Shown here: piece after piece, positions 2,841 to 13,804 of the stretch
How the letters are laid out: each line of letters opens with the position of its first letter
How positions within the stretch are numbered: position 1 is the first letter of the stretch
Assembly: GCA_007693965.1 (NCBI GenBank)
Contig: RECQ01000070.1
Location: 1 to 37,132 of the forward strand
Direction: 5' to 3'
Source: Phycisphaeraceae bacterium
Lineage (GTDB): Bacteria; Planctomycetota; Phycisphaerae; Phycisphaerales; UBA1924
DNA length: 37,132 bases
The notes under the pieces: generated by a model
Database searches by the model: none
Told to the model about the DNA's origin: nothing
Seen by the model: only the letters and a program-made list of their open reading frames with translations
Program-made: the position numbers and the translations under genes

Positions 2841-4467
<1,627 letters not shown>

Positions 4468-11125: not shown

Positions 11126-12355
11126 TCATCCAGCCCGATCCCCCAAACCCTTCACCCGCTCCACATACCTCCCCGTCGCATCCATATCCCGCCTCCCCAT
11201 CATCGCCTCCATCGCGATCAAAAACTTCTCCATCCGGTACCGCTTCTCCCCCGCATCCGTCCACCACGCGAACGCCTCCACCGTCGCGGGCGCAAACCCG
11301 CTCACCGCAACCATCGCCCCCGTGCCGATCACAGCGCCCGTCATCAGCCGCGTGCCGATGGCGAACTTCGCATGGTCCCCCACCACCGCGCCGAGGAACG
11401 TCATCCCCGTGCGCACGCGCTTCGCCTTGGCGCTCGACTGCATCATCACTTCGCCGTAGGTGTTGAGCAGGTTCGAATTGGTCGTCCCCGCGCCGAAGTT
11501 CACCCACTCGCCCACCCACGAATCGCCGAGGTGGCCGTCGTGGGCCTTGTTCGAGAACCCCTGGAAGATCGTGCCGCCCACCTCGCCGCCGATTTTGCAC
11601 ACCGGGCCGATGGCCGTATTCGCCTTGATGTGCGCACGATCGACGATCGTCGAGCCCGCGCCGATGTACGCCGGGCCGCAGATGACCGCGCCGGGGCGCA
11701 CCACCGCGTCCGGCCCGATGACGATCGGCCCGCCCTGCGCATCCAGCGTGACCAGCGGGCAGATCTCCGCCGTCGGATCGACCGCGACATGGTGATCGCC
11801 CAGGATCGCCACGCCCGGCCCCAGCCCCTCGACCTGCTCCTCATCCGCGAAGAGCGCCAGGTCCATCGCGATCGCCGCATCGCGCAGGCGGATCACATCG
11901 CACGGATGCCGCAGCATGCAGCGCTCTTTCTGCTCGACCGACTTCAATCCCCGCGGTAGAGCCCCGGCCTTCCCCCCAGCCTTCAAAAACCGCTCCGCAT
12001 CCGCCCGCGCCAGATGCGCCGCCACCAATTCGCCTCCGCCCGCCTCGCGCAACGCCTCGCCCACCTTCAATTCCCCGATCGCCTCCGGCGGCAGCGCGCA
12101 CCGCGCACTCACCAGCAGCAGCGCATCCCCTGCAGGCAGCTCGTTCACCGCAACATCCAGCCGCTCCGAGGCCAGCCCGGCGAGCCCGTCGCTCGTCCAC
12201 ACCGCCGCGGCGTCGCGCCCGAGGGCGTGCTCGATCCGCTCCAGCGTGGTCAGCGCCCCCGTGCGCACCTCGAAGGACGCACGGAGATCGGTCATCGGAC
12301 TCAGCGACTCGGGATCGTCGTCAAAGACGATCAGCGGCGGGGGCTGCTGCGGCAT
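11126..12355 (-). CDS. GlmU-like sugar-phosphate acyltransferase / putative nucleotidyltransferase
   Basis: The product is 409 residues from the ATG at 12355; an upstream in-frame ATG at 12475 gives a low-complexity extension and was not used. Residues from about 190 on form a left-handed beta-helix of hexapeptide repeats (ILGDHHVAVDPTAEI, IVIGPDAVVRPGAVI, YIGAGSTI, HIKANTAIGPVCKIGG). The stretch GHLGDSWVGEWVNFGAGTTN corresponds to the acetyltransferase region of GlmU. The N-terminal half (LIVFDDDPESLSPMTDLRAS) lacks the classic GlmU pyrophosphorylase signature of the LAAGxGTRM type. It instead resembles the GlmU-like family found in Bacteroidetes and related phyla, annotated as putative sugar nucleotidyltransferase. 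A role in supplying UDP-amino sugars for the envelope is likely, but the substrate is unknown. Confidence 0.8.
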   Translation of the reverse strand: MPQQPPPLIVFDDDPESLSPMTDLRASFEVRTGALTTLERIEHALGRDAAAVWTSDGLAGLASERLDVAVNELPAGDALLLVSARCALPPEAIGELKVGEALREAGGGELVAAHLARADAERFLKAGGKAGALPRGLKSVEQKERCMLRHPCDVIRLRDAAIAMDLALFADEEQVEGLGPGVAILGDHHVAVDPTAEICPLVTLDAQGGPIVIGPDAVVRPGAVICGPAYIGAGSTIVDRAHIKANTAIGPVCKIGGEVGGTIFQGFSNKAHDGHLGDSWVGEWVNFGAGTTNSNLLNTYGEVMMQSSAKAKRVRTGMTFLGAVVGDHAKFAIGTRLMTGAVIGTGAMVAVSGFAPATVEAFAWWTDAGEKRYRMEKFLIAMEAMMGRRDMDATGRYVERVKGLGDRAG

Positions 12356-12465
12356 GGGGGCAGAGTGTAGCGAGGGGAGGCCGAAGCGCTCAATGGCACT
12401 GGGCGGACGCCGTGGACTGGGGGAAGTCCGGGATCGCAGCAAGAACTGGGCGCTGCGTGCTGGGT

Positions 12466-12558
12466 GCCGTGGCAAGCTTGTTTTTGCTTGCCACGCGATT
12501 CGTCAGCCAGCGTGAGAACTTCCATGCGCGTGGCAAGCAAAAACAAGCTTGCCACGGC
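12466..12558. repeat. Perfect 32-bp inverted repeat with nested hairpins (REPIN-like)
   Basis: Arms 12466-12497 and 12527-12558 are perfect reverse complements, separated by 29 bases. Each arm is itself a hairpin: a stem of GTGGCAAGC paired with GCTTGCCAC (plus one flanking C-G pair) around an 8-base T-rich loop. It lies between two minus-strand genes (upstream stop at 12584, downstream start at 12355). This is the architecture of paired REP sequences (REPINs). It could also act as a terminator for the secreted-protein gene, since T-runs lie inside the loops. Confidence 0.9.
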
Positions 12559-12583
12559 GCCCTCGCTTTGGCGCTATTAGAAA

Positions 12584-13681
12584 CTACCTCGCATCCGGCC
12601 CATACATATCCGCGCCGCCGCCGGGACCGTACATGTCTTCCCCATCCCCGGGGCCATACATGTCTTCCCCGTCGCCCGGCCCGTACATGTCCGCCGGAAC
12701 GCGCGCTGCCGGAAGCAGATTCCGCAGGTTCGAAGCGCCGACCGACTCATCGCCCAGGCGGATCGCGTTCTCGATGGCGCGCCGGGCCGAGTCGTCATTG
12801 CCGAGCAGGTAGTGCATCGACGCGAGCATGAAGTGGGCCTCGGCGTCGTTCGGGCGCCGGTCGACCAGCTCGTAGTAGCGGTGCGACAGGTTCTCGATGC
12901 GCTGCCGCAGCATGCGATCGACCGGCGTGTACATGATGCGCTCGGGGTCGAACTCGAAGGCGCGGCGCATGGCCCACGATGCCGAGCGGTCGTCGCCCCG
13001 CATCGCCGCGGCCAGTGAGTAGCCAACCTTGGGCAGACCGTCCTGCAGATTCTCAGACGCCAGCGCGCCGAACTGGCGCAGGGCCGCATCCGGCCGATCC
13101 GCGCCCAGCAGCTCCCAGCCGCGCTGCAGACTCTGAGCCGCGGCCCGGCCGGACGACGAGGCCGAAGCGGCCCGCTGATCGACCACCACCACGCTCGGCG
13201 ACCGCTGCACCACCGTGCGCGTCGGCGCCGGCGCCGCCACGATGCGACGCTCATACTCAGACGGCGGACGCTCGACCACCACCACCTGCGGCGGGGCCTG
13301 ATACACCACACGCGGCGGCGGTGAATACACACGACCATGCCGCGTGTAGGTATTCACACGCGAACGGCAGCTGCAGATGCTCACGCAGCCGCAGGAAAGC
13401 CGAGATTCATACCGATGGATCGTCCGCCGCGGCGGCGTATACGAGCTGTACAGCGGCGCCGAGAAGCCCACACTGAATCCGGAGCGCCGGCTCGAACGGT
13501 GATACCCGAAGCCGATGCGGCTTTGCGAGTAGGTCGGAGCGCAATAGCCCCGCGAGCCGATCGAGATGTGCGTTGAAAAACCGGAGCGGCTGTGCCAGGC
13601 GGAGGCGGTCTCCGACGCGATCAGGAAGGCGCCCGCGATCACGCCGCACGAAAGGACGAGACGAATATTCTTCGACGCCAT
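12584..13681 (-). CDS. Secreted Arg/Ser/Tyr-rich protein with TPR-like domain and C-terminal repeats
   Basis: The product is 365 residues from the ATG at 13681, which has AGGAG 7 bases upstream; an earlier in-frame ATG at 13768 lacks this. Residues 1-28 are a signal peptide (LVLSCGVIAGAFLIASETAS then A/WHS). About 29-150 is rich in Arg, Ser, Tyr and Gly (SGFSTHISIGSRGYC, GFSVGFSAPLYSSY) with a Cys cluster (LSCGCVSICSCRS). About 190-335 is helical and TPR-like (LQRGWELLGADRPDAALRQF, AEAHFMLASMHYLLGNDDSA). The C-terminus is four copies of a (E/A)DMYGPG(D/G)G-type octapeptide, encoded by 24-base repeats at about 12598-12690. An envelope-associated structural or assembly role is plausible, but no function is established. 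Confidence 0.75.
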   Translation of the reverse strand: MASKNIRLVLSCGVIAGAFLIASETASAWHSRSGFSTHISIGSRGYCAPTYSQSRIGFGYHRSSRRSGFSVGFSAPLYSSYTPPRRTIHRYESRLSCGCVSICSCRSRVNTYTRHGRVYSPPPRVVYQAPPQVVVVERPPSEYERRIVAAPAPTRTVVQRSPSVVVVDQRAASASSSGRAAAQSLQRGWELLGADRPDAALRQFGALASENLQDGLPKVGYSLAAAMRGDDRSASWAMRRAFEFDPERIMYTPVDRMLRQRIENLSHRYYELVDRRPNDAEAHFMLASMHYLLGNDDSARRAIENAIRLGDESVGASNLRNLLPAARVPADMYGPGDGEDMYGPGDGEDMYGPGGGADMYGPDAR

Positions 13682-13804
13682 ATCGAGTCTCCTGTTGTCA
13701 GCCTGCCACAGCATCATACGCCCGTGCCCCGGCCCCGGATGCACCGCAGGAGGAAATCGACCCGGCAAATTCGCCCAGTTTCACACCTGAGCGATTGCTG
13801 GAGC

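What the first reader, a model, noticed from the sequence alone, without database searches (positions are those of the whole stretch)
12466..12558. Perfect nested inverted repeat
Two 32-base arms with no mismatch, each folding into its own hairpin (GTGGCAAGC/GCTTGCCAC), separated by 29 bases. Perfect identity suggests a recent insertion or active maintenance, as for REPINs mobilised by a RAYT transposase.
Basis: seen in the sequence. Interest (0 to 1): 0.5.

Follow-up and report, generated by a model that had tools for sequence, protein, structure and literature searches.

The report
A REPIN with an unusual tag
The perfect inverted repeat is one copy of a tiny mobile DNA element (a REPIN) that a single-strand transposase encoded elsewhere in the same genome most likely copies around, and this element and relatives in related bacteria carry a recognition tag different from the textbook one.

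Summary
In detail: two 32-nt arms, no mismatch, 29 nt apart; with one mismatch they extend to 36 nt, window 12462-12562. The genome holds 19 places within 3 mismatches of the 26-nt hairpin, 0 for the reversed pattern, 13 of 19 in inverted pairs, and one intact RAYT gene (contig C65) with these hairpins on both sides. A second, more diverged hairpin family shares the same ends. So this is a REPIN with its RAYT.

RAYT homologues in related genomes, sharing a GGG(Y/F)DRN-type motif, are flanked by hairpins with other stems but the same kind of foot, GGGTG(C/G)C: both flanks in 41 of 64 loci, 2 of 64 in distant flank, 0 of 6 canonical RAYT loci, which all carry GTAGG. GTGC lies outside the GT(A/G)G descriptor of a published REP survey. 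In one distant genome a related RAYT stands in nine near-identical copies ending exactly in such hairpins: IS-like, apparently self-moving. Cleavage and mobility are inferred, not shown.

The parts
12462..12468 (+). left terminal tag GGGTGCC, outside the hairpin stem
   Evidence: GGG(T/C)GCC stands outside the hairpin at 19 of 19 places, and bases further out are not conserved in 53 aligned rows
12469..12494 (+). left REP hairpin GTGGCAAGC-TTGTTTTT-GCTTGCCAC (C12468/G12495 add a tenth pair)
12496..12529 (.). REPIN spacer; read on the minus strand it begins with a stretch (CATGGAAGTTCTC) resembled by the spacer at C73:52541 and, more weakly, at C73:55275
12530..12555 (-). right REP hairpin, exact reverse complement of the left one
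12556..12562 (-). right terminal tag, GGGCGCC read on the minus strand
12584..13768 (-). gene upstream of the REPIN (TPR-type protein, C-terminal MYGPG repeats); its stop lies 21 nt from the REPIN end
11126..12355 (-). gene downstream in the same direction (sugar nucleotidyl transferase with hexapeptide repeats); start placed by me at ATG 12355, so that the REPIN lies wholly between genes

Best explanation
The inverted repeat is a REPIN: a miniature, non-autonomous, single-strand-transposed element made of two REP hairpins in inverted orientation (tags outward) with a short spacer, dispersed by the one RAYT (TnpA-REP, HUH/Y1 nuclease) of its group found in this genome, which carries the same REPs on both sides of its gene. 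Shown: dispersed inverted pairs with sharp ends, stem covariation, RAYT linked to the cognate REPs, and the same architecture with genome-specific stems but a common foot in related genomes. Inferred: the RAYT recognises REP hairpins on single-stranded (probably lagging-strand or transcribed) DNA, reads the unpaired foot G(T/C)GC as its guide in the place where canonical RAYTs read GTAG, cuts beside it through the catalytic tyrosine of YIHDNP, and moves or copies the hairpin-spacer-hairpin unit. By the published cross-pairing rule for guides a GTGC foot should select a G|C or G|A site instead of C|T.
For: Copies: 19 places against 0 in the control; 18 exact-stem places. GGG(C/T)GCCGTGG: 76 places against 8 for the reversed pattern. 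With a slightly wider pattern 82 distinct heads are in the held own-genome stretches, 50 with a full hairpin. Orientation: of 24 neighbouring tag pairs within 200 nt, 13 are + then - (one of these, C53, is 29 nt long and no hairpin pair), 1 is - then +, 10 are same-strand. Stem covariation: T-A to G-C at the second GTGG position, in both arms of one REPIN (C31:15053/15172); in the 28-nt family 26 double-change cells against a shuffle mean of 5.5, maximum 11 in 1000; in the window's own 26-nt family 4 against a mean of 0.5 but a maximum of 4, so weaker. RAYT: (only PDB match up to E 0.1: 4er8 TnpArep, E 1.8e-5); HVH motif and Y---NP signature. Family test: GTGCC ranks first of 1024 5-mers at hairpin feet, 25 of 43 loci, 20 of 43 on both flanks, against at most 10 and 6 for the other 29 permutations of its letters. 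Wider set: GGGTG(C/G)C on both flanks in 41 of 64, far zone 2 of 64, reversed pattern 1 of 64, best of six permutations 9 of 64, canonical RAYTs 0 of 6. Genome-specific stems: 135 places in G035, 0 in four other genomes; the window's hairpin in 0 of 40 relatives. IS-like parallel: nine REP-RAYT-REP copies with exact ends.
Against: No movement or cleavage was observed. No empty site could be compared. Of the seven homologues that score best against the window genome's RAYT (L051-L056, L080; 52-58% identical) only L080 has tagged hairpins on both flanks and L052 one; L051 and L053-L056 have none by my detector, though tag-bearing repeated pieces lie beside L051, L054, L055 and L056. 23 of 64 group loci lack GGGTG(C/G)C on one or both flanks and 9 of 64 on both; six of these 9 show GTGCC after other letters, three (L074, L151, L161) none that I saw. 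The second base of the tag is C in 16 of 53 own-genome rows, so GTGC is not strict. The random-window control for GTGCC was 8.65 of 43. The guide role rests on analogy.
Confidence: 0.9

Rival explanations
1. A transcription terminator or mRNA 3'-end stabilising hairpin of the upstream TPR gene, kept for regulation, with no mobility.
For: It lies 21 nt after a stop codon, between two genes of one direction, and folds very stably.
Against: No terminator-like site was found at 12300-12700, and no Rfam family there. The same sequence recurs at other places and around a RAYT, with a conserved tag outside the stem, often in inverted pairs. A side role in mRNA stability is not excluded.
Confidence: 0.05
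2. A terminal-inverted-repeat MITE of an ordinary DDE transposon.
For: Short, non-coding, inverted ends, dispersed copies.
Against: Each arm is itself a hairpin with covarying pairs. Aligned flanks show no conserved bases next to the ends; I did not test for target duplications systematically. The linked transposase is HUH/Y1.
Confidence: 0.02
3. A REPIN whose recognition motif is still the canonical one: the GTGG at the base of the stem acts as the GT(A/G)G tetranucleotide, and GGGYGCC is only flanking sequence.
For: GTGG stands at the base of nearly all own-genome REPs listed (the pattern asked for GTGG or GGGG), and known REPs carry GTGG.
Against: Here GTGG is paired, with its T-A pair replaced by G-C on both sides in two arms of each family. 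In many related RAYT loci the stem base is something else (CACTG, CATGG, CACGG, CCGGG) while the foot GGGTG(C/G)C stays.
Confidence: 0.12

Closest known systems
REPINs of Pseudomonas fluorescens SBW25 (Bertels and Rainey 2011, PMC3116915; passages seen)
   Same: Inverted REP doublet with spacer, dispersed, REP clusters beside the cognate RAYT, single-copy RAYT.
   Different: Foot GGGYGCC; the SBW25 REPs listed in PMC2817692 begin GTGG or contain TGT(G/A)G (one passage seen). Hairpin loop of 8 nt in the window's family; tens rather than hundreds of arms.
GTAG-tagged REP superfamily and REPtrons (Di Nocera 2013, PMC3733652; abstract, sections 5 and 16, and passages read)
   Same: Tagged hairpins, dimers 20-100 nt apart mostly with tags outside (HH), RAYT flanked by REPs; GTAG and CGTC families were reported in Planctomycetes.
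   Different: Neither GTAG nor CGTC tag. GTGC is not named in the sections read; the figures are not held.
TnpA-REP subclasses and class 3 of Quentin 2018 (PMC6006769; abstract, sections 12, 27, 38 and passages read)
   Same: HUH plus Y---NP class 2 signature; REP-like structures with copies elsewhere in the genome.
   Different: Their automatic REP descriptor demands GTAG or GTGG 0-2 nt from the stem; class 3 feet are CnGA. Which subclass the GGG(Y/F)DRN group falls in was not determined.
TIRtrons / TIRYT (Di Nocera 2013)
   Same: RAYT-like gene between repeats that are not GTAG REPs.
   Different: The repeats here are short tagged hairpins in REPIN pairs, not long TIRs, and do not fit GGGGWSAS.

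Membership tests
REPIN | two REP hairpins in inverted orientation with a spacer | tested here: met
   13 +/- neighbours within 200 nt against 1 -/+ among 24
REPIN | dispersed multi-copy family in the genome | tested here: met
   19 places, control 0; 76 tags against 8
REPIN | cognate REPs flank a RAYT in the same genome | tested here: met
   C65:47229-48469 around the RAYT at 47683-48336
REPIN | extragenic location | tested here: met
   for the window copy only, 12356-12583; other copies not tested
REPIN | movement as a unit | not testable with these tools
   no strain series or reads; empty-site attempt failed
RAYT / TnpA-REP | HUH motif and Y---NP catalytic motif | tested here: met
   HVH and YIHDNP
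RAYT / TnpA-REP | passes the curated family model | tested here: met
   NF047646 91.7 bits, cut-off 80; of 8 further proteins 7 pass, L156 with 76.0 does not
RAYT / TnpA-REP | cleaves its REP next to the tag | not testable with these tools
   needs the purified enzyme
GTAG REP superfamily | GTAG or GTGG tetranucleotide unpaired at the hairpin foot | tested here: not met
   foot is GGGYGCC; the GTGG present is paired
GTAG REP superfamily | guide-contact residues Q95 and R104 of E. coli TnpA-REP | tested here: not met
   L and Y in the window genome's RAYT; in the 64 group rows Q95 is kept in 55 and R104 in 15, in the 6 canonical rows both in 6
IS200/IS605 element | transposase inside the repeated unit | tested here: not met
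   the element is 101 nt; the RAYT is single-copy in this genome
TIRtron | TIRs with GGGGWSAS (a motif of some TIRs) | tested here: not met
   ends read GGGYGCC
Class 3 TnpA-Y1 | Y----Q motif and CnGA foot | tested here: not met
   YIHDNP and a G(T/C)GC foot

The most novel reading that the evidence does not exclude
A phylum-wide third REP superfamily tagged GGGTG(C/G)C, bound to its own RAYT clade (GGG(Y/F)DRN in place of RF(W/Y)EH): in its main form the last base of the guide has changed from G to C and with it, by the cross-pairing rule, the cleavage and target dinucleotide. Neighbouring members that still move as whole REP-RAYT-REP units (nine copies in G228) would be living intermediates between IS200/IS605 transposons and domesticated RAYTs.
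Probability: 0.45. Interest if true: 0.65.

Novelty: new variant of a known kind. Interest (0 to 1): 0.5.

Why it matters
The REP survey whose method I read looks for GTAG or GTGG at the hairpin foot and so would pass over GTGC-tagged families. A RAYT clade with a changed guide region and a changed foot gives a natural test of the open question how TnpA-REP chooses its cleavage site. A multicopy RAYT with REP ends would run against the published view that RAYTs are single-copy and appear unable to move themselves (PMC3116915, passages), and would give a system in which REP-end mobility can be assayed directly.

Tried and rejected
Hairpin in named genomes: 24 stretches in genome contigs match GTGGCAAGC-N8-GCTTGCCAC, one place each; 0 of 24 have the tag; taken as chance.

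Empty-site comparison: the transferase gene was searched in 31 genomes (29 matched, own included); tblastn found no TPR-gene homologue in the 19 relative loci held (1.5 kb on each side, less at contig ends), so there was no orthologous intergenic stretch to compare.

Own-genome Y1 genes other than the RAYT (C35, C19, C25, C3): none has the window's hairpin within about 1.5 kb.

RAYT on plasmids: one weak match only, Bernardetia, 26%.

Tag states on the RAYT tree were assigned by hand. later showed that many of the rows labelled 'none' (for example L051, L054-L056, L061, L064, L084, L085, L090-L093) carry GTGC- or GTGG-type pieces that my hairpin filter had missed or that I had not counted. I therefore use that tree only for the split between the canonical RAYTs and the rest, not for counts of tag changes.

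A conserved insertion target upstream of GGG: none found; only an excess of C/T at -1 (35 of 50, p 0.007), not built upon.

Paper searches for prior reports: RAYT+REPIN, RAYT+Planctomycet, TIRYT, REPtron, REP-associated tyrosine transposase+Planctomycetes, domesticated bacterial transposases, TnpAREP+crystal structure+GTAG+REP, repetitive extragenic palindromic+Planctomycetes+transposase, tyrosine transposase+REP sequences+GTGC (0 papers), RAREFAN. I saw no GTGC-tagged REP superfamily in these listings or in the parts of the five papers that I opened (PMC3733652, PMC6006769, PMC8266576, PMC2817692, PMC3116915); other listed papers were not opened, and subscription papers (such as Bertels 2017, recalled) are not held.

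Full report
Observation. The window (the whole of contig C2 of a 3.48 Mb, 74-contig assembly) holds at 12466-12497 and 12527-12558 two exactly complementary 32-nt arms with a 29-nt spacer. With one mismatch the arms reach 36 nt, 12462-12562. Each arm is itself a hairpin, GTGGCAAGC-TTGTTTTT-GCTTGCCAC. As DNA the stretch folds with z -11.6. It lies between two genes of the same direction: 21 nt after the stop of a TPR-type gene and 106 nt before the ATG that I take as the start of a sugar nucleotidyl transferase gene.

Copies. Within 3 mismatches the 26-mer occurs at 19 places, 6 exact, on eight contigs, control 0. 13 of the 19 lie in inverted pairs of whole hairpins: 61 nt apart as in the window (C73:55214/55275), 60 (C18) or 114-119 (C65 twice, C73, C31; the C31 partner appears). 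Outside the stem stands GGG(T/C)GCC at 19 of 19 places, and further out nothing is conserved in 53 rows. A search with GGG(C/T)GCCGTGG found 76 places against 8 for the pattern read backwards. I held stretches for all but 2 of these and found a second hairpin family, GTGG(T/C)A(A/G)AGCCGTC(C/T)TCGGCT(C/T)TGCCAC and variants, in pairs of 84-87 nt between tag ends (four; one more of 121 nt on C12) or as single arms. By a pairing rule there are 21 arms of the 26-nt type and 28 of the 28-nt type, with 33 heads left over; some of the latter are chance, some are truncated REPs. Stem pairs covary: T-A becomes G-C at the second GTGG position in two arms of each type; the 28-nt type has 26 double-change cells against a shuffle mean of 5.5 and maximum of 11; the 26-nt type, with 11 distinct arms, has 4 against a mean of 0.5 and a maximum of 4.

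Transposase. Five Y1_Tnp matches exist in the genome. The one on C65 lies amid these REPs: 47229+, 47355+, 47469-, 47614- on one side and 48330+, 48444- on the other. Its 218-codon open stretch (P0001; a likely ATG start lies at residue 34) has HVH and YIHDNP, passes NCBIfam REP_Tyr_transpos (91.7 bits, cut-off 80), and its only PDB match up to E 0.1 is E. coli TnpA-REP, 4er8. It is the only match to itself in this genome at E 0.001.

The tag. In 60 relatives plus the own genome, 35 of 61 have a match to this RAYT. I took 50 loci: the 30 returned and 20 of the further rows (14 strong, 6 remote). 43 share the motif W-x2-GGG(Y/F)DR (A, P or S allowed at the second G, H at Y/F) and 7 do not. Among hairpins (stem 9 or more, one mismatch) within 600 nt, stems differ from genome to genome but the foot recurs. 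Of all 1024 5-mers GTGCC is the commonest at the foot: 25 of 43 loci, 20 of 43 on both flanks; the other permutations of the same letters reach at most 10 and 6. Random windows in the same flanks gave 8.65 of 43, inflated by REP arrays. A phylum sample (199 genomes, 20 with a match at E 1e-30, own included) added 27 loci, and E. coli K-12 was added as a known RAYT, 78 in all. 64 have the GGG motif, 6 the canonical R(F/Y)(W/Y)EH motif, 8 neither. GGGTG(C/G)C within 400 nt: any flank 55 of 64, both flanks 41 of 64, both far flanks 2 of 64; reversed pattern on both flanks 1 of 64, six permutations 0 to 9 of 64; canonical 0 of 6. GTAGG on both flanks: 6 of 6 canonical, 5 of 64 for the GGG set near the gene and 8 of 64 far. 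These loci are not independent (several per genome), and contig ends shorten some zones. By the commoner of the two forms, 30 loci are GTGCC-rich, 22 GTGGC-rich, 12 neither. In the RAYT tree the canonical six split from the other 70 rows with 100/100 support.

Why the change may matter. Published work shows that E. coli TnpA-REP tolerates no change in GTAG, that Q95, position 100 and R104 are among the residues at the motif, and that in a more flexible system (REPtron Mb) changing GTAG to GTGG or GTAC moves cleavage to CC or to GA/GT (PMC8266576, passages). In the GGG group the region has one extra residue; position 100 is D in 64 of 64 and 101 R or K in 64 of 64 (the motif used for selection demands these), Q95 is kept in 55 of 64 and R104 in 15 of 64, against 6 of 6 for E100, H101, Q95 and R104 in the canonical rows. 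D100 and R101 are also known from GTAG-type subclasses, so they are not by themselves a mark of the new tag. A GTGC guide would be expected to pick G|C or G|A. This is inference. The survey that defined REP types automatically required GTAG or GTGG (PMC6006769, section 38), so GTGC feet would not have been counted by it.

Genome-specific stems. The window's hairpin is in 0 of 40 relatives and, with its tag, in 0 of 24 matches elsewhere. G035's tag-stem sequence has 135 places in G035 and 0 in four other genomes. This fits one RAYT evolving with one REP set in each genome.

A moving RAYT. In G228 nine copies, 93-99% identical over about 773 nt, of a unit CGCGGGTGGCCCCC...RAYT...GGGGGCCACCCGCG stand in unrelated flanks with exact ends; beside one (L177) a further end piece follows in tandem. 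28 end sequences within 2 mismatches are in the genome, ten more than nine units need. The protein of one copy passes the RAYT model (89.8 bits) but lies outside the GGG motif set, in another branch of the tree, and its foot is of the GTGG form. It supports the idea that such enzymes mobilise DNA between inverted tagged hairpins.

Limits. No organism names were given for the genomes. That they are Planctomycetota is my recollection from the protein motifs and genome character, not a tool result. Movement, cleavage and the guide role are not shown.

Noticed in passing
L171-L179 (genome G228): Nine near-identical REP-RAYT-REP units with exact ends at unrelated sites: an apparently self-moving, IS-like RAYT, contrary to the usual single-copy picture. 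About ten further end sequences occur without such a unit.
   Followed up: partly
L003 (twice), L005, L006, L102, L106, L128, L136 (own genome): Eight truncated 5' REP heads (GYGCCGTGG plus 6-18 nt) lie directly before an intact REP in the same orientation, against 1 in a control zone 100-134 nt upstream. Possibly a footprint of insertion or template switching.
   Followed up: partly
own-genome 28-nt REP family (L101-L137): The pair at the fifth stem position after the closing C/G pair is T opposite G in 22 of 28 arms, a kept mismatch or wobble reminiscent of the stem irregularity that E. coli TnpA-REP needs.
   Followed up: no
G035 (L060 and 135 places): A RAYT flanked by long arrays of REPs of two stem types; 135 places of one tag-stem sequence in a 4.5 Mb draft, several near contig ends.
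   Followed up: partly
window 12597-12691: 27-nt repeats encode the C-terminal MYGPG(D/G)G repeats of the TPR-type protein beside the REPIN.
   Followed up: no
own genome C19:9588-9923: A Y1_Tnp gene (93 bits) interrupted by one TAG: probably a decaying copy.
   Followed up: no
window 4394-4467: The only Rfam match at gathering score in the window, a tRNA gene on the minus strand.
   Followed up: no
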